Part shown: positions 10,736 to 19,276 of the stretch, in pieces
Position numbering within the stretch: the first letter of the stretch is position 1
Layout: each line of letters starts with the position of its first letter
NCBI GenBank assembly: GCA_003280485.1
Contig: QCEU01000001.1
Span: 1 to 64,000, forward strand
Length of the DNA: 64,000 bases
Source of the DNA: Pelagibacteraceae bacterium AG-359-O02
Lineage (GTDB): Bacteria; Pseudomonadota; Alphaproteobacteria; Pelagibacterales; Pelagibacteraceae
Direction: 5' to 3'
Made by a program: the position numbers and the translations under genes
Notes under the pieces: model-generated
What the model was told of the DNA's origin: nothing
Database searches by the model: none
Seen by the model: only the letters and a program-made list of their open reading frames with translations

Positions 10736-10804
10736 TTAAAGAATGTATTTATCACCCAAATACATTGCAAATGCGATAGCAGCGCCTAATAAAATATACT
10801 TCAT
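10736..10804 (-). CDS. Putative 22-aa single-TM micropeptide
   Basis: Own translation MKYILLGAAIAFAMYLGDKYIL*; ATG overlaps the TGA of the upstream gene (ATGA). Confidence 0.3.
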   Translation of the reverse strand: MKYILLGAAIAFAMYLGDKYIL

Positions 10805-11268
10805 GTTTCATCCTTTATTAATTTATCATCTTTATAAGTCCAGATTTCCAGATCAATTTTTTCACTAGGTATTTCATTAGTACCTTCTTTGTATTTTTCT
10901 ACTTTTTTAAAGTTTAAAAGTATTCCTTTTGTTACTTTTTTAATTATTTCATGATTATTATAAGGGGCTGATCTTAATTGAGATTTTAGCTGATGTCGGT
11001 TTGAATCATCAATTTTAGAAGCTTGTTTCATCTCAATAATTAAGTATTCCTCCAAATCATCATGAGGTGAAACAATAAAGTCTAACTCTAAAAAACCTAG
11101 GGGGTTCCCATCATAATAAATTTGAATACTTGGCTCTCTTAAATGAGGTATTTTTAACTTATCAAACTCAATAGATAATGCAGCCTGGATATGTTTCTCT
11201 TCAGTGCCGCCTATTTGATCATATATTTTTTCAGAAACAGTCCTAAGGTTTTCAATAAATTTATTCAT
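10801..11268 (-). CDS. GxxExxY-like protein (PD-(D/E)XK-type fold family)
   Basis: GGTEEKHIQAALSIEFDKLKIPHLREPSIQIYYDGNPLGFLELDFIVS...YLIIEMKQ...GILLNF pattern. Confidence 0.55.
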   Translation of the reverse strand: MNKFIENLRTVSEKIYDQIGGTEEKHIQAALSIEFDKLKIPHLREPSIQIYYDGNPLGFLELDFIVSPHDDLEEYLIIEMKQASKIDDSNRHQLKSQLRSAPYNNHEIIKKVTKGILLNFKKVEKYKEGTNEIPSEKIDLEIWTYKDDKLIKDET

Positions 11269-11293
11269 TATTTTTAATCATATAGTAAAAGTA

Positions 11294-11467
11294 TTATTTT
11301 TTGTTCTTTATTTTAAACCCATTTTTTTCAAGAACTTTTATCAAATTCTTGAGCCTTTCATCTCTTGAAGTGTTTTGATCTCCGATACTTTCAAAAAATA
11401 TAGGTTTTAAACCTTTTTTTTCTTTTGATTGAAAATATTCTTTTATTGATTGTATTATATATTTCAT
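11294..11467 (-). CDS. Small hypothetical protein, 57 aa (below ORF-track cutoff)
   Basis: Own translation MKYIIQSIKEYFQSKEKKGLKPIFFESIGDQNTSRDERLKNLIKVLEKNGFKIKNKK*; GGAGAAG SD-like sequence before ATG. Confidence 0.45.
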   Translation of the reverse strand: MKYIIQSIKEYFQSKEKKGLKPIFFESIGDQNTSRDERLKNLIKVLEKNGFKIKNKK

Positions 11468-11616
11468 GCTTCTCCTTTAGCGTTGTGTTTAAAGTCCCAG
11501 CAAGTAGAGTTAAGTTCTAAATCAGGACAGATAAATTTATATCATAGTTTAGTCATATTTTTTAGTTATTTTGTTAATTGTTAAAGTTATTTTTCAAACT
11601 TTAAAAAACTCAAAAC

Positions 11617-11946
11617 ATGCAACAATTAGAACTATTTGATTATAGAAAAGATTATATCTTTGATAGAGAAAATCAGATTGCACATTATTATGATATTTTA
11701 GGTGAAACAAGAGACACAATTAGTTATTCAGAGCATATAGATCCAAAAAAAGGTTTTTCTGTATGTGGAATGGATTATGAGGAATATGTTGATGTTAAGA
11801 AAATACACTTAGGAAATCTTACATATGATCAAATATTAGTATATTTAAAACAATCTGAGAAAGATCAAAGAATTCAAAAATATAAAGAACTTCTTAAGTT
11901 TAGAAATATTCCATATGAACATGACACATTCACTTGGAGCAATTAA
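11617..11946 (+). CDS. Hypothetical protein, 109 aa
   Basis: Intact ORF with no competing frame; no recognised domain. Confidence 0.5.
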   Translation: MQQLELFDYRKDYIFDRENQIAHYYDILGETRDTISYSEHIDPKKGFSVCGMDYEEYVDVKKIHLGNLTYDQILVYLKQSEKDQRIQKYKELLKFRNIPYEHDTFTWSN

Positions 11947-12008
11947 GATTTATAAATAAAATAGCCATTCATCTAACAACTTGGGGTCTCAAAATAACTA
12001 TCTTTGAA

Positions 12009-13298
12009 TTAATTTTTTGCTCTATTATCTTTTAGCTTTCTGATATTGGCCCAATCTACTGCTTCCTGTGGACTTAAGGCTTTTGATGATGGACCTTGTC
12101 GTATATATATATTTCCGTTCAAGGACGCAGTCTTTTCTACAGGTAGTTTTTCACACTTTACTATACCTATATTTTCTTTTGATAATATTTCAGGATGAAT
12201 ATAATTTTCAAGGAGCTCACCTCCTATTTGTTTTAAGACTTTATCTTTTAAAAACCTCAACCATTCATCGTTGCTTTTAAATCTATCTATCTGAATACCT
12301 ATAATTTTTTTATCGTCATCAACACCTATAACCAAAGTACCGCCTTTGGTATTTAAAAAAGCAACTATAGCCCTTAGGACTTCATATGTCATTTTTTCAT
12401 CAATTTGATTAGTTCTGATATTAACTCTTAAAGAAGACTTATATTCATGAATCACACTTTCATCTTTTGTAAGTAAATTTGCCTCATTTGTGTGCTCGGC
12501 ATAATCAAGTGCTAATGAAGCATCAGAGTAAGCTCTATCTGATAATTCTTGATATCTTTTATTTTCCTCTTTTTTATTTTTTGCATCTATAAAAACATAG
12601 TAAAAATTATTGTTTAAACCAATATATGCTTGGGCATATTCTGAAACTGTAATTTTTTTTGAGATTAAAAGAAATGGTAATAGTATTGAGCAATTACCCA
12701 ACATTGAATATAACGCATTTATGGAACCTTTTTCCTCATTACTTAAACCATTAAATATCTCAAAAATTTTTTTTGTTACTTTGGTATTTATAAAATCTTG
12801 ATCAGAAATAAATTTTCCTGGTCCTGGATCTTCACCATTTGTCATATTTCCATAATATTCTCCCCATGCATAACTAGTTAATTTTTCGTATTCATTTTTT
12901 CCAATTATTTCTATAATTTTATTATTTGCATTTCTTAATCTTACTTCCTGATCTAATTCAAAAGGAGGACCATTAGTCGATCTGTACAATAAATGATCAT
13001 ACTTAGGATAAAGATTTATGAGTTTATTTTGATATTCCATATTTTCTGATCCTTCGATCTGAGTTATTTGATCTGAAAAAATTGCATAAGCACAAAAAAT
13101 ATTATTAAAATTTATTGAGTTATTTTTTTTGAGTTTAAGTTCACCACATCTGTCAAGATCATTTTTAATAAATTCTATTATTTTTTTTGATTTATGCTTA
13201 ATTTTATTCTTTCCTTGGGCTGTTAGAATAGAAATATTTTCAAGCTTTAAAACATATTCACTATTTTCTTTTTCTATATTTAAATCATAAAAAAACAT
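12009..13298 (-). CDS. C-terminal AlbA_2 (Schlafen-type) domain protein; N-terminal half ATP12-like
   Basis: C-term: VIHEYKSSLRVN...VLRAIVAFLNTKGGTLVIGVDDDKKIIGI...EKTASLNGNIYIRQGPSSKALSPQEAVDW (AlbA_2). N-term: FFYDLNIEKENSEYVLKLENISILTAQGK...YDHLLYRSTNGPPFELDQE...LGNCSILLPFLLISKKITVSEYAQA (ATP12-like order). Confidence 0.65.
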   Translation of the reverse strand: MFFYDLNIEKENSEYVLKLENISILTAQGKNKIKHKSKKIIEFIKNDLDRCGELKLKKNNSINFNNIFCAYAIFSDQITQIEGSENMEYQNKLINLYPKYDHLLYRSTNGPPFELDQEVRLRNANNKIIEIIGKNEYEKLTSYAWGEYYGNMTNGEDPGPGKFISDQDFINTKVTKKIFEIFNGLSNEEKGSINALYSMLGNCSILLPFLLISKKITVSEYAQAYIGLNNNFYYVFIDAKNKKEENKRYQELSDRAYSDASLALDYAEHTNEANLLTKDESVIHEYKSSLRVNIRTNQIDEKMTYEVLRAIVAFLNTKGGTLVIGVDDDKKIIGIQIDRFKSNDEWLRFLKDKVLKQIGGELLENYIHPEILSKENIGIVKCEKLPVEKTASLNGNIYIRQGPSSKALSPQEAVDWANIRKLKDNRAKN

Positions 13299-13356
13299 TT
13301 TAATTATTAAAATTATTAATTATATTCTTTTGCAATATTTTTGATATATTAATTTT

Positions 13357-15846
13357 TCATGATATTGCATTTGGCCTTTTTTTGAATTCCTCAGGTGATA
13401 TGACTGTGTCCCACAAACCAATTTTATTTTTTTCGTGCATATTTGGCCCTAAGTATTGCAAGCTATGATCCTCATATCTTTTAAATAAAAAAATACTCTG
13501 ATTCATTAATAAACTGTTAAAGACCCCTAAACTAAGTAAAAGTTGAAATTCTTTTTTGGTTATTCCCACAACTTTGTTAAACAGTCCTGGTTGAATTTCA
13601 GAAATTACGTCCTTTAAGCATTTTTCTCGATGATCTGTTAAATACATAAAGACAGGAATACGTGTACCAAACCTTAATAGTTTTTCTCTAATTTTTTTTC
13701 TTGCGTTTTTATTATCTTTTTCTTCTTGAGAAAGTATTTTCTTTTGTTTTTCTTTAATTTTATCGTTCTCTTTTTTAATTTCTTTTATTTTCTTAGTTCT
13801 ATTAATTATTGTTGATATATCTTCATTAATATTTCTAAATCCCTCGATTTTTGAAAGAATATCCATAGCATTTTTGTTATTTAAAATTCTCGTTAATGTG
13901 TTGTCATCAACATTAACTAATTTGTCACTTTTCCATCTTCTTGCTAAGAGGGTTGCAGTAGTGCCACTAGTTACAATTTCCAGAATTCCTTTAGCATCGA
14001 TTTCCTTCATGCTACTTCCATCATAGCAAAGTATTGGTAAAAAATTTATTAATTCACTTACAGATTTCTCAGGATCATCGTTTTCTGCTTGATTTTTACT
14101 ACAATAATTTGAAATTAAATTTAATGCTCTATTGGGTGCAAAATCAAAAACATAACATTTTTCCTTATAGATAATCTCATTATTAATCTTTTCTTCATTT
14201 TTAATTGTCCAAGGTGACTGAACGCGAAACGCAGCTTGAAAATAAGTTTCTAGACTTGATGTATTTCTTAACATAAAAATTCCAGACCAAGGCTTTACTG
14301 TAACACCTGTCATTAGTTTACCACATGACAATGTTATAGTTTTACATTTAATTGGATCTGGTTTTTTCATTGCGTCTTGAACGGGTAATAGAGCTTTAGC
14401 GCCCATCCCTGCTGAAATTCCAGCAGCAACTATAATTTCATAATTATTAAAAAAATAATTTTGCCTTTTTAATAATAAATTTTTCATTGCATGACATGAA
14501 TTTATACTTGGTAAAAACCATACTGTATGTTGAAGTATCTCTTTTAAATCATTTTCCTGAAATGGCATTGGTGGTTTTGAATGACCCATTTTTAAGCTAT
14601 CAATACTATTTTCTTTGAGACTACCACATATAAATTCAATCCATTTTTGAACTTCATTTTCATGATTAAAAGTTGCAGCAGAACCTTTTCCTTTTGCAGA
14701 AAAAAAAGTATTTAAGTCAAATTCGTTAAATTCACCTCCTTTTGCAATATCTGCAACAACCTCTGGTATTTGATATGTCATCATTATCATTTGCGGTAAA
14801 GATAAATAAGGATTATTTTCACCTTTCCACATTAATTTTGCATTTTGTTCATCACTGTATGTCCAATTATAAATTTGTTCCTCTATGAACTCACCTTCTG
14901 TTAAAGCTCTAAACGGTGTACCTGATAAATATAGATAATGATCAGTAGTAATTGGCATCAAATCTTCGTCAAAAAAATCAATTCCTTCGCCTGTTAAAAG
15001 CTTTATTTCTTTTTTATCTTCACCATCAAAAAGCTCTTTAGATTTGTCCCTCCAGGCACCAAAATGATATTCATCAAATACTACGCAATCCCAATTTATC
15101 TCATGTGCCCATTGGTTTTTTAACTTTATGCCACCCGATTTTGATTTTCCAAGAAAATCTTGAAATGATGCAAAACAAACAAATTTTTTCTTTTTATTTA
15201 AATTTTGAAAAGTGTCGCTTTTTGCATTGAAAAACGTCCAATCAACAAAATCTTTATGTAATGTTAGGTCTTCTTCCCATGCGTGCTGTACAGCAGGTTT
15301 AAATGTTAAAATTAAAACTCTCTTCCAATTCATTCTTTTTGCTAAATGGTATGCTGCAAATGTTTTTCCAAATCTCATTTTAGCATTCCATAAGAAATGT
15401 GATGTATCCTGACTTTTTTCTTCTTTCAATTTTGTAAAATAGTTTACTGTCTTATTAATTGCATCTTTTTGCTCTGGTCTAAGTTTAAAATCAAAAATTC
15501 TATTTTTTTCAAATTCCTTATTATGTTTTAATGATAGGATTGCTGACTTTACATCGTTAACATTACATTTAATCCACTCACCTTTAATTTTCTTAAAACC
15601 TTTATTGATTAGTTTTCTACGAACTTCGTGATCAGTAATTATAGTACCATCATGTTTAACTGCACTTTCTTCCATAACAAGACTCCATGTTTTTTTTGGT
15701 CTTATCACAGGATATTGTTCTTTTATTCTTTTGACTGCATCATTGCTTGTGTAGCCAATTTTTAGCAAACCCTTAAAAGACTCATCTTCATAAGCGTAAA
15801 TTACTGGTAAAACTTTCTTTATTTTTGGAAAATATTTATTAACCAT
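13357..15846 (-). CDS. SF2 helicase with N-terminal GIY-YIG/T5orf172-like domain (restriction-type)
   Basis: Likely start MVNKYF at 15846. N-term VIYAYEDESFKGLLKIGYTSNDAVKRIKEQ...DHEVRRKLINKGFKKIKGEWIKC; helicase MRFGKTFAAYHLAKR, VVFDEYHFGAWRD, LYLSGTPFRAL, YFQAAFRVQSPW. Confidence 0.75.
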   Translation of the reverse strand: MVNKYFPKIKKVLPVIYAYEDESFKGLLKIGYTSNDAVKRIKEQYPVIRPKKTWSLVMEESAVKHDGTIITDHEVRRKLINKGFKKIKGEWIKCNVNDVKSAILSLKHNKEFEKNRIFDFKLRPEQKDAINKTVNYFTKLKEEKSQDTSHFLWNAKMRFGKTFAAYHLAKRMNWKRVLILTFKPAVQHAWEEDLTLHKDFVDWTFFNAKSDTFQNLNKKKKFVCFASFQDFLGKSKSGGIKLKNQWAHEINWDCVVFDEYHFGAWRDKSKELFDGEDKKEIKLLTGEGIDFFDEDLMPITTDHYLYLSGTPFRALTEGEFIEEQIYNWTYSDEQNAKLMWKGENNPYLSLPQMIMMTYQIPEVVADIAKGGEFNEFDLNTFFSAKGKGSAATFNHENEVQKWIEFICGSLKENSIDSLKMGHSKPPMPFQENDLKEILQHTVWFLPSINSCHAMKNLLLKRQNYFFNNYEIIVAAGISAGMGAKALLPVQDAMKKPDPIKCKTITLSCGKLMTGVTVKPWSGIFMLRNTSSLETYFQAAFRVQSPWTIKNEEKINNEIIYKEKCYVFDFAPNRALNLISNYCSKNQAENDDPEKSVSELINFLPILCYDGSSMKEIDAKGILEIVTSGTTATLLARRWKSDKLVNVDDNTLTRILNNKNAMDILSKIEGFRNINEDISTIINRTKKIKEIKKENDKIKEKQKKILSQEEKDNKNARKKIREKLLRFGTRIPVFMYLTDHREKCLKDVISEIQPGLFNKVVGITKKEFQLLLSLGVFNSLLMNQSIFLFKRYEDHSLQYLGPNMHEKNKIGLWDTVISPEEFKKRPNAIS

Positions 15847-17353
15847 CTGTAGGATGCACCATCTTTTCAATAAAATTTATTTCATTATCTGATAATTTAT
15901 ATTTTGAGTATAAATTTTTGTCATTCAACTCATTGTCGAAATTTTCTAATGGTACAAATTCATAAACACTTTTAGTAGTGTGTTGAGTATTCTTTTTTAG
16001 AGTGATTAAAAAATGAAAGAATTTTGTTTTAATATAACTAATTACGTTTAAACACTCTTTTTTTGTTTTAAAAGGACCAATATTCAAATAAGTTTCTGTA
16101 TTGCATGAACCTGGTTCTGAATAAATAGGTTTGATGTAATCTGTTTTACTATCACCAGTACCAACAGCATATGGAACAATTACTTTATGTTTGTTTACCC
16201 ATTGATGATTATTAACAATCATTTTTTGCTCTATGTATCCAATTCCACCTTTTTGATAAATTTTTATAGAATTTTTAAAAGATTTGCTTTTTCCCTTAAA
16301 TTCAGTTGTTATACCATAAGGCTTTCTTGAGCTAACTAAATCGCTAAAGCTGTTGTTGTTTATTTTTTGAATTTTTTTCAAAATAGAAATGGCATCATTA
16401 TATCTTATAAATGTAGAATAATTTGGTTCTAACAAAGGCCTAGTTCCATCTTGAATAACTTTGCCTTTATCATGTGTTATAATTTCACAATCACCTGTAT
16501 TGTCTCTATCCCAAAGGAAAAAACATACGCCACCTTTTATTGAAACACCATTTCCAAAACATTCAGAAGCATCTAAATAATCGTGAAGAATTCTTATTCT
16601 TTTATCATTCAGCATATTAGATCTGAATTCATCTAAACCCTTTCCACCAGTGAACCATCTTGAGGGTATTATCATACTTAAATATTTTGGATTAAGTTTT
16701 TTTGCTTGTTCGACAAACAATTGATAAATAGGTTTTGCACTTGCCTCGTGACCTCCATCTTTCAATTGATATGGTGGATTTCCTACAATTACATCAAATT
16801 TCATATTTTCATCAAATATTTTTGCTACATTTTCATTATGAATAAATTCGTAGGCATAATTTTCTAATTTTTTATCCCTATCATAAACATTATAGCTAGC
16901 TCCACAGTACTTACAATTTGTTTTATATTTATTCCAAACATGTTCTTTATTAGAATAATAAATATTACCATTATTATTGTTAAATATATCAGTTATTGAT
17001 TTTGATCCACTTGCATTAATAGAACAATATAATGATCTTCTTGTCATAAAAGATGTCAATTCAGTAACGCCAATTCCATATATCTGATTTTTTAATATAT
17101 GATTAATTCTTTTTTTTTCATTTTTTATCTCATGAATTAATCCATTATTTAATCGGGTTGCCACTTCTCTCAAAAAAACTCCCGTTTTAGAACCGGGGTC
17201 TAAAAATTTGATATTTTTATTTTTCCATATAGATTGTGGCAATAAATCCAATATCTTGTTAACTAATAAAGGTGAAGTGAATACTTCATCACTACTTAGA
17301 TTTGATATGCAGTCTAAAATATCTGGATTATATTTTCGTTGAACTTGTTTCAT
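15839..17353 (-). CDS. Eco57I-type N6-adenine DNA methyltransferase
   Basis: Motif I FLDPGSKTGVFLRE; motif IV IVGNPPYQLKDGG; KYLSMIIPSRWFTGGKGLDEFR. Confidence 0.82.
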   Translation of the reverse strand: MKQVQRKYNPDILDCISNLSSDEVFTSPLLVNKILDLLPQSIWKNKNIKFLDPGSKTGVFLREVATRLNNGLIHEIKNEKKRINHILKNQIYGIGVTELTSFMTRRSLYCSINASGSKSITDIFNNNNGNIYYSNKEHVWNKYKTNCKYCGASYNVYDRDKKLENYAYEFIHNENVAKIFDENMKFDVIVGNPPYQLKDGGHEASAKPIYQLFVEQAKKLNPKYLSMIIPSRWFTGGKGLDEFRSNMLNDKRIRILHDYLDASECFGNGVSIKGGVCFFLWDRDNTGDCEIITHDKGKVIQDGTRPLLEPNYSTFIRYNDAISILKKIQKINNNSFSDLVSSRKPYGITTEFKGKSKSFKNSIKIYQKGGIGYIEQKMIVNNHQWVNKHKVIVPYAVGTGDSKTDYIKPIYSEPGSCNTETYLNIGPFKTKKECLNVISYIKTKFFHFLITLKKNTQHTTKSVYEFVPLENFDNELNDKNLYSKYKLSDNEINFIEKMVHPTDG

Positions 17354-17996
17354 CGATTTTTAAAAAATGTTGTGGCGGGTATTCTCTAACAGGCTCAGGT
17401 ATAAAGGCCTCTTCCCCTAAATCAGAAAATAAGTTAAAACCTTCAAAAGGTCTTGTTTCTATAAGATGTTTAAATGTAAAGTCACGTCTTTTAATCATTG
17501 TTGAATTAAAAAAAGACCATTCACTAAAAACTATAGGTTTTTTTAATTTAACTAAAGTTAATGTCAAAGCATCACCATGAATTATGTTTTTCTTCAAAAT
17601 AAATTTTATTGATCGAATAAATTCATCTTTAATTTCTGCAAATATGTACTTAAATCTGTCAATTATTGTTTTTTCTAGCCTTTTTCTTGTTTCTAAAACA
17701 TTATCTTCAATAATATCAATACCATAAAGTGATGATAAAGCTAATAAAGAGTATTTTTCAGAATCAAATTGATTTTTTTTATACTTGTTTATTACAAAGT
17801 TTAATTTTTTATTTAAAATGTTATCTAAGAAATTACCTTCACCACATGCAGGTTCTAGGAATCTAGAATCAGGTCTATCAAGTTCATGACTAAATAAACT
17901 AACCATATTTTCAACCTCTTTTTCAGAGGTGAAAACTTCACCAAAATTTTGAACTCTTAATTTAGATTTAATTATATTTTGTTTAGATTTAACCAT
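17328..17996 (-). CDS. DNA methyltransferase-like protein without a canonical NPPY motif
   Basis: Likely start MVKSKQNI at 17996. FGEVFTSEKEVENMVSLF, RFLEPACGEGNFLDNIL, LYGIDIIEDNVLETRKRL; region expected to carry (D/N)PPY reads KKPIVFSEWSFFNSTMIKRRDFTF. Confidence 0.7.
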   Translation of the reverse strand: MVKSKQNIIKSKLRVQNFGEVFTSEKEVENMVSLFSHELDRPDSRFLEPACGEGNFLDNILNKKLNFVINKYKKNQFDSEKYSLLALSSLYGIDIIEDNVLETRKRLEKTIIDRFKYIFAEIKDEFIRSIKFILKKNIIHGDALTLTLVKLKKPIVFSEWSFFNSTMIKRRDFTFKHLIETRPFEGFNLFSDLGEEAFIPEPVREYPPQHFLKIDETSSTKI

Positions 17997-18076
17997 GTAA
18001 AAAAATACATCTTTTTCATATAAAAGACAAATTTGTAACTTAAAGTAAACAAATAGATTATTTAATAAAAATAATC

Positions 18077-18652
18077 GTGAGATTATCATTATTCTTTTTT
18101 CTTCATTTAGTAGCGTTTGTTATCCTTTTGATAGTCCACCCTCATGCTAGAGCTCAGGATGATGGGTGGGCTATAATTGAGAAAGATAAAAACTTTATTT
18201 ACATGTCTAAAAACGGTGAATTTATACATGGTGATAGAATTGTTTTATCTTTAAATTACAAGGATTGTGACACCGTTTATCATTTATTTACTTTTTTAAC
18301 GACAAAAGGTGATGCCAATATTTACCAATTTGAAAATCAAAATATTCCAATAAAAATAAATAATTTTGATTTTTTTGCTGAAGTTACTCATATAGAAAAA
18401 ATATTAGATCATAGAGCTCATTGGGTAGTATTTAAGTTAGGTTCCTACGATTCAAAAGAATATGCCCAAAAATTATCAGGGTTCATTGAGGAAAACGAGA
18501 GATACGAAATTTCATTAAATGATGGCTTAAATTTTGAGGTTAAAAATTATTTCGATATTAGAAGAAATAATTGGAAACTTGATTATTTCTCTGAAAATTT
18601 TAAGGAATTCTATAGGCGTTGTAACGAAAAAAATAAAATAAAGGAAAGTTAA
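18077..18652 (+). CDS. Secreted hypothetical protein (tandem paralogue A), GTG start
   Basis: Signal peptide LSLFFFLHLVAFVILLIVHPHARA; GEFIHGDRIVLSLNYKDCD...FTFLTTKG...IPIKINN shared with next gene. Confidence 0.65.
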   Translation: MRLSLFFFLHLVAFVILLIVHPHARAQDDGWAIIEKDKNFIYMSKNGEFIHGDRIVLSLNYKDCDTVYHLFTFLTTKGDANIYQFENQNIPIKINNFDFFAEVTHIEKILDHRAHWVVFKLGSYDSKEYAQKLSGFIEENERYEISLNDGLNFEVKNYFDIRRNNWKLDYFSENFKEFYRRCNEKNKIKES

Positions 18653-18706: not shown

Positions 18707-19276
18707 GTGTTTTTTAAAATTTTAAGAAATTTTTTATTGGTTTCAGTTATTTTTACAACGTTTTCTTATGCTAGTGATGATGAATGGAATATTCATGATT
18801 TTGGGAGTTATGTTGTAGCGAGTGTGCCTGGCGAAGTAGTTCATGGAGATAAAATGAGATTTGTTCTTGAAAAAAGAAACTGCAATAAAATTGGAATAAT
18901 GTTTTCCTTTTTAACTTATAAAAGTTCAGAGACACCCGAATTACAAGGAAGAAAGGTTCCTATAAGAATAAATGGGTCTGATACATTAAATATTGCTGAC
19001 GTTGTACTTGTTAGACCAGCTTTTAGTAATATGGCTTTTTTTGTAATGTTTACAGCTCCTCAGTATTATCCTTTAGATGAATTTACCGATGGCATTATGA
19101 ACGATTATCGAAAAGATAAACAATTTAGTATAACTCTTGCTAAGTCTGATGATTTTGATCCTGAAAAATATTTTGATATATTGGATAACAACTGGAAATT
19201 AGATAAATTCCCAGAAAAAATTACTGAGGCTCATCTAATGTGTACAGGTAAACCTAATAAAATTTTCAAAGGCTGA
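18707..19276 (+). CDS. Secreted hypothetical protein (tandem paralogue B), GTG start
   Basis: Signal peptide FFKILRNFLLVSVIFTTFSYA; GEVVHGDKMRFVLEKRNCN...FSFLTYKS...VPIRING; YFDILDNNWKLDKFPE parallels YFDIRRNNWKLDYFSE. Confidence 0.65.
   Translation: MFFKILRNFLLVSVIFTTFSYASDDEWNIHDFGSYVVASVPGEVVHGDKMRFVLEKRNCNKIGIMFSFLTYKSSETPELQGRKVPIRINGSDTLNIADVVLVRPAFSNMAFFVMFTAPQYYPLDEFTDGIMNDYRKDKQFSITLAKSDDFDPEKYFDILDNNWKLDKFPEKITEAHLMCTGKPNKIFKG

What the first reader, a model, noticed from the sequence alone, without database searches (positions are those of the whole stretch)
12009..17996. Compact defence-like island: two MTase-like proteins + GIY-YIG/T5orf172-helicase + AlbA_2 protein
Four consecutive minus-strand genes in an otherwise housekeeping stretch; the two MTase-like ORFs overlap at 17328-17353 and the Eco57I-type MTase overlaps the helicase ORF at about 15839-15846. 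The set combines a complete Eco57I-type MTase (DPGSKTG, NPPY), an MTase-like partner, and a protein joining a T5orf172-like GIY-YIG domain (GLLKIGYTSNDAVKRIKEQ) to an SF2 helicase (DEYH, LSGTPFRAL). It matches no complete named system I know (type I, classical type III, BREX, DISARM). If functional, the GIY-YIG domain would be the nuclease and the helicase the translocator. Restriction-modification systems are thought to be uncommon in streamlined SAR11-like genomes, making this a candidate undescribed or poorly described R-M/antiphage system.
Basis: partly seen in the sequence, partly recalled or inferred. Interest (0 to 1): 0.82.

Follow-up and report, generated by a model that had tools for sequence, protein, structure and literature searches.

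The report
DrdVI-type restriction-modification cassette in SAR11
Three of the four genes are a horizontally acquired copy of an already named but little studied restriction-modification system (DrdVI type: two methyltransferase subunits plus a nuclease-helicase), sitting in a streamlined ocean bacterium (SAR11) where such systems are uncommon; the fourth gene is an unrelated neighbour.

Summary
Three of them match, one for one and in order, the DrdVI system of Deinococcus wulumuqiensis plasmid pDrdVI: M1 43%, M2 48%, nuclease-translocase 49% identical over nearly full length. In the literature M1-2.DrdVI was cloned in E. coli (GCAGCC, 6mA, "IIG"), and DrdVI is described as a fused translocase and GIY-YIG-type endonuclease. 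The cassette is common: 105 fetched loci keep the order M1-M2-R, and at least 582 stretches in species-representative genomes encode R. The AlbA_2 gene is not part of it. Here the set lies in one ~7.2 kb insertion; a close SAR11 relative has ~48 bp there. About 1% of sampled SAR11 genomes carry the cassette. Verdict: new member of a known kind. One detail I found in no paper I read: M1 always keeps the SAM-binding motif but lacks NPPY, while M2 always keeps NPPY but has an invariant Lys in its SAM motif. The window's R lies on a long branch with 11 of 226 conserved columns changed, so restriction may be weakened, although every catalytic motif is intact.

The parts
17328..17996 (-). M1: 222-aa MTase-like subunit (M1.DrdVI homologue); intact SAM motif I, no NPPY
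   Evidence: 43% identical to M1.DrdVI over 213 aa; AlphaFold2 model pLDDT 88.7 with a Rossmann-like half; motif counts over 105 distinct M1
17826..17861 (-). M1 motif I, FLEPACGEGNFL
   Evidence: E-P and G-x-G invariant in 105/105 M1
17508..17534 (-). M1 motif-IV position: IVFSEWSFF in place of NPPY
   Evidence: Trp160 invariant 105/105; no NPPY at this position in any
15839..17353 (-). M2: Eco57I-type N6-adenine MTase with C-terminal target recognition domain (M2.DrdVI homologue)
   Evidence: 48% identical to M2.DrdVI over 528 alignment columns; PF07669 4e-37; model pLDDT 87.9, best PDB matches CamA, BrxX/PglX, M.BseCI, E down to 7e-19
16556..17089 (-). Eco57I domain of M2 with NPPYQ
   Evidence: NPPY 114/114 in M2 homologues
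16838..16942 (-). Insert in M2 with invariant H138, C147, C150, H172: possible zinc site
   Evidence: invariant in the 46-sequence alignment A5; zinc binding is inference
16079..16486 (-). Hypervariable part of M2 (residues 290-425), taken as the target recognition domain
   Evidence: mean identity to homologues 33% here against 58% in residues 8-240
13357..15846 (-). R: GIY-YIG (T5orf172) nuclease fused to SF2 helicase/translocase (DrdVI homologue)
   Evidence: 49% identical to DrdVI over 852 alignment columns; T5orf172 and ResIII Pfam matches
15538..15804 (-). GIY-YIG/T5orf172 nuclease domain of R
   Evidence: Pfam residues 15-103; Y17, K29, G31, R40, E90 conserved in 133 of 133 R with residues there
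14212..15489 (-). SF2 helicase core of R (MRFGKT, DEYH, SGTPF, QAAFRVQ)
   Evidence: motif residues invariant or nearly so in 134 distinct R
12009..13298 (-). AlbA_2 (Schlafen) protein, in the same insertion but not part of the conserved cassette
   Evidence: PF04326; no homologue in the four other cassette loci from SAR11 bins, none in plasmids, only the domain in 2 other of 298 SAR11 genomes
10801..11268 (-). GxxExxY/PDDEXK_3 protein, passenger in the same insertion
   Evidence: PF13366 4e-12, TIGR04256 1e-10
10805..18014 (.). Extent of the ~7.2 kb insertion relative to the empty site in SAR11 genome G004
   Evidence: nucleotide homology to G004 (87%) stops at window 10804 and resumes at 18015, with ~48 bp between in G004

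Best explanation
A DrdVI-type restriction-modification system acquired horizontally by a SAR11 bacterium. Inferred working: M2 (with M1 as obligate partner) puts 6mA on one strand of an asymmetric, roughly 6-bp site set by the M2 recognition domain, so host DNA is protected. On unmethylated incoming DNA the M1-M2 complex recruits or activates R, whose SF2 motor translocates with ATP and whose N-terminal GIY-YIG domain cuts. Shown here: gene content, order, homology, motif conservation, insertion into an empty site. Shown in the literature for the named relative only: 6mA methylation at GCAGCC by cloned M1-2.DrdVI. Inferred: translocation, cleavage, phage restriction, and that this copy is active. 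Its recognition site is unknown; its recognition domain is not close enough to M2.DrdVI's to assume GCAGCC.
For: One-for-one match in order to pDrdVI genes: 43%, 48%, 49% identity. PADLOC model PDLC03626 (Type IIG REase-MTase) covers both R (profile 117-801) and M2 (864-1322) of the window, and fused R-M2 proteins exist. Catalytic residues invariant. M2 recognition region far more variable than the rest, as expected of R-M specificity domains. Clean empty site in a relative.
Against: No activity data for this copy. Window R sits on a long branch (0.72) and departs from 11 of 226 columns that are at least 97% conserved, second highest of 133 rows. Restriction by DrdVI itself is not reported in the papers I could read, only methylation. 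The related DnmA-YeeB-YeeC set of B. subtilis gave no protection against three phages (PMC9973331).
Confidence: 0.8

Rival explanations
1. A relic: M1-M2 still methylate, but R is weakened or dead, leaving in effect an orphan methylase, as proposed for DnmA in B. subtilis.
For: Long branch and 11 of 226 conserved R columns changed while M2 has 0 of 66 changed; precedent in PMC9973331.
Against: R reads through in full with no stop or frameshift, and every nuclease and helicase motif residue checked is intact; the changed positions are outside those motifs, though P532L lies next to the motif beginning E533.
Confidence: 0.2
2. An undescribed four-gene defence system in which AlbA_2 is a working component.
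For: The AlbA_2 gene lies 58 bp downstream of R on the same strand. One other locus (L072) has a different AlbA_2 protein between M2 and R, and pDrdVI has another on the opposite strand.
Against: P0004 shares only a short AlbA_2 stretch with the pDrdVI one; no P0004 match in the four other cassette loci from SAR11 bins and only two other weak loci in the wider set. Varied cargo (DUF1016, Bro-N, RhuM, PDDEXK_3) is found inside other copies of the cassette.
Confidence: 0.04
3. Mis-binned or mis-assembled foreign contig rather than a SAR11 locus.
For: Such a case exists among relatives: G363's copy lies on a contig unlike SAR11. The window's genome is 84.7% complete in 34 contigs.
Against: Both flanks are 87% identical in nucleotides, and mostly 88-98% in protein, to SAR11 genome G004, with the empty site between. 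Two other SAR11 species share a copy at one orthologous site.
Confidence: 0.02

Closest known systems
DrdVI / M1-2.DrdVI, Deinococcus wulumuqiensis NEB 479, plasmid pDrdVI (PMC6430315, PMC4996451)
   Same: Same three genes, same order, 43-49% identity, same domains and motifs including M1 without NPPY and M2 with Lys in motif I
   Different: Chromosomal island rather than plasmid; recognition region of M2 only moderately similar, so the site may differ from GCAGCC; island carries AlbA_2 and GxxExxY genes
Fused R-M2 single-chain version (e.g. Enterococcus faecium L012, Pediococcus pRS5 L011; PADLOC PDLC03626 Type IIG)
   Same: GIY-YIG, helicase and Eco57I MTase in the same functional set with a separate M1-like gene upstream
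   Different: Nuclease-helicase and M2 fused in one ~1400-aa chain; here they are separate genes
OspHL35III kind / DnmA-YeeB-YeeC (PMC4752239, PMC9973331)
   Same: MTase with TRD plus translocase plus GIY-YIG (T5orf172) nuclease
   Different: MmeI-type single MTase, and translocase and GIY-YIG on separate proteins; no M1
Type ISP (LlaGI, LlaBIII)
   Same: SF2 motor plus gamma-type N6A MTase plus TRD, asymmetric site (from general knowledge)
   Different: Single chain with an Mrr-type nuclease instead of GIY-YIG (general knowledge); only fold-level similarity of the MTase
CglI (PMC5737866)
   Different: R.CglI and H.CglI are separate proteins (abstract); works as a mechanistic comparison only

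Membership tests
DrdVI-type R-M | M1, M2 and R genes homologous to M1.DrdVI, M2.DrdVI, DrdVI over nearly full length | tested here: met
   43%, 48%, 49% identity
DrdVI-type R-M | Gene order M1-M2-R on one strand, closely packed or overlapping | tested here: met
DrdVI-type R-M | GIY-YIG nuclease fused N-terminally to SF2 translocase | tested here: met
DrdVI-type R-M | 6mA methylation of an asymmetric site by M1+M2 | not testable with these tools
   Shown for M1-2.DrdVI only (PMC6430315); TRD similarity too low to assume GCAGCC
DrdVI-type R-M | ATP-dependent cleavage of unmethylated DNA | not testable with these tools
   catalytic motifs intact; no activity data
[quoted passage not shown]
   GIY-YIG and helicase are one protein; M2 is Eco57I type
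BREX | PglX with PglZ and BrxC genes | tested here: not met
   no PglZ or BrxC among the genes of the insertion; PglX models match M1/M2 only weakly
DISARM / MADS | DrmA/B or the MAD gene set | tested here: not met
   DrmMI and mad2 matches weak and partial, NCBIfam MAD2 22 bits against cut-off 720

The most novel reading that the evidence does not exclude
M1 and M2 are complementary halves of one methyltransferase: M1 supplies SAM binding (invariant motif I, no NPPY) and M2 supplies catalysis and target recognition (invariant NPPY, Lys in place of the first Gly of motif I), giving an active site or SAM control shared across two chains. This pairing would be a general feature of the DrdVI kind.
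Probability: 0.12. Interest if true: 0.55.

Novelty: new member of a known kind. Interest (0 to 1): 0.33.

Why it matters
It removes a false lead (an undescribed four-gene system) and replaces it with a named kind that is far more widespread than the few papers on it suggest: hundreds of loci across bacteria, archaea, plasmids and viral contigs. It documents an intact R-M cassette with a clean empty site in SAR11, where a marine methylome study reported finding none in its own genomes (PMC9516812). It also points to a conserved, testable oddity in the two MTase subunits.

Tried and rejected
(1) P0003 alone against viral contigs found no relatives; an alignment query found 55. (2) Idea that the window M2 recognises GCAGCC: its recognition region (290-425) is closest to L063 (59%), and Rhizobium L003, which shares 68% with M2.DrdVI there, has only 42% with the window, so no site is predicted. 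(3) Idea that in a distant phage clade M2 has lost its SAM half and M1 supplies it: wrong. Reading L136, L139, L143, L147, L148 showed M2 with its own motif I (for example FDPACGYGTF) and NPPY, and a short M1 beside it where the gene is seen (L139, L147, L148). This lowers the composite-site reading. (4) AlbA_2 as a component: rejected. (5) G363 as a SAR11 carrier: rejected, foreign contig. (6) SAR11 copies as one ancestral acquisition: not supported. Two of them group with SAR116 (99), the window copy does not, with a long-branch warning. (7) Flanking repeats and promoters: nothing beyond chance for promoter-like and terminator-like sites, and no repeat pair spans both junctions. (8) Sequence search against PDB: nothing for R, only weak hits for M1 and M2.

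Full report
WHAT IS THERE. The four genes are real and intact: 17328-17996, 15839-17353, 13357-15846 and 12009-13298, all on the minus strand, with overlaps of 26 and 8 bp between the first three. Pfam gives Eco57I in the second, T5orf172 (GIY-YIG kind) plus ResIII helicase in the third, and SLFN_AlbA_2 in the fourth; the first has only weak MTase matches and no NPPY.

HOST AND INSERTION. The 16S gene of the window's genome matches the targets of the SAR11 probes 441R, 542R and 732R exactly (probe sequences recalled from memory). In SAR11 genome G004 most of the compared flanking proteins are 88-98% identical, and the nucleotide alignment stops at window 10804 and resumes at 18015, with about 48 bp between in G004. 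So one ~7.2 kb insertion carries, in window order, a GxxExxY/PDDEXK gene, a plus-strand ORF, the AlbA_2 gene, and the three R-M genes. No flanking repeat or integrase was seen.

IDENTITY. A plasmid search found 81 records, among them Deinococcus wulumuqiensis NEB 479 plasmid pDrdVI with three genes in the same order. Identities are 43% (M1), 48% (M2) and 49% (R) over nearly full length. The genome paper lists M1-2.DrdVI on that plasmid with motif GCAGCC, 6mA, type IIG, cloned and expressed in E. coli ER2796 (PMC6430315). [quoted passage not shown] The set is therefore a DrdVI-type R-M, not an undescribed system.

HOW COMMON. Viral contigs gave 55. Of the loci fetched, 105 have M1, M2 and R in that order, 76 with M2 and R adjacent. 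In the others, cargo sits between, including DUF1016, Bro-N, RhuM, PDDEXK_3 and one AlbA_2 protein. Some lineages fuse R and M2. Among 398 SAR11-order genomes, five besides a short weak match hold R: the window's, G252, G138, G326 and G363; the last is on a foreign contig. G138 and G326 share one site, next to a gene that looks like hisG, and G252 lies elsewhere (gene names here are read from the sequence). For context, strong N6_Mtase hits (over 100 bits) occur in 24 of 298 SAR11 genomes and strong Eco57I hits (over 90 bits) in 10 (counted from the printed rows). R-M is uncommon there but not absent.

MOTIFS. Over 105 distinct M1, 114 M2 and 134 R: M1 motif I has E-P and G-x-G invariant, while the motif-IV position reads x-E/Q-W with Trp invariant and never NPPY. 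M2 has NPPY in all, and a Lys in place of the first Gly of motif I in all 112 with residues there. R keeps the GIY-YIG residues, MRFGKT, DEYH, SGTPF and QAAFRVQ. M2 also has invariant H138, C147, C150 and H172, a possible zinc site. AlphaFold2 models are confident (pLDDT 88.7 and 87.9). M2 matches CamA, BrxX and M.BseCI; M1 resembles only the first half of such MTases, weakly (E 0.01 or worse).

MECHANISM. Inferred: M1-M2 methylate one adenine of an asymmetric site; on unmethylated DNA R, an ATP-driven motor with a GIY-YIG cutter, is engaged. The recognition part of M2 is variable (33% against 58% for the rest), as expected. The site cannot be predicted. That M1 and M2 form a complex is suggested by the M1-2 naming, by a Bibersteinia gene similar to M1 at one end and M2 at the other (PMC4996451), and by a PHROG that matches both. 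A composite active site is one reading of the motif pattern, but in a distant phage clade M2 has a canonical motif I, which speaks against M1 simply replacing it.

DOUBTS. R of the window has a long branch and 11 changed positions among 226 highly conserved ones, second of 133; none is in the catalytic motifs checked. M2 has none of 66, M1 two of 29. The system may methylate without restricting well, as reported for DnmA-YeeB-YeeC of B. subtilis (PMC9973331).

ALBA_2. P0004 shares only a short AlbA_2 stretch with the pDrdVI protein, has no match in the other cassette loci from SAR11 bins, no plasmid match, and only its domain is found in two other SAR11-order genomes. It is treated as a passenger.

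Noticed in passing
window 10801-11268: GxxExxY/PDDEXK_3 gene inside the same insertion; a relative of it lies between M1 and M2 in locus L033, so this family recurs as R-M operon cargo.
   Followed up: partly
window 18077-18652 and 18707-19276: Two neighbouring paralogous, apparently exported small proteins beside the insertion; in G004 only the first 38 residues of the first remain recognisable.
   Followed up: partly
L157 (G363:C12:20500-40000): A cassette-bearing contig in a SAR11 bin that does not look like SAR11: bin contamination.
   Followed up: partly
L136, L139, L143, L147, L148 (viral contigs): Distant phage version: R and a complete MTase with canonical motif I, with a very short motif-I-only M1 (149-179 aa) downstream where the gene is seen (L139, L147, L148); order R-M2-M1.
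   Followed up: partly
L029, L033, L043, L058, L072 and others: Accessory genes (DUF1016/YhcG, Bro-N, RhuM, AlbA_2) inserted between M2 and R.
   Followed up: partly
L155, L156 (G138, G326): A ~370-aa ORF follows R directly in both SAR11 copies at the shared site; function not examined.
   Followed up: no
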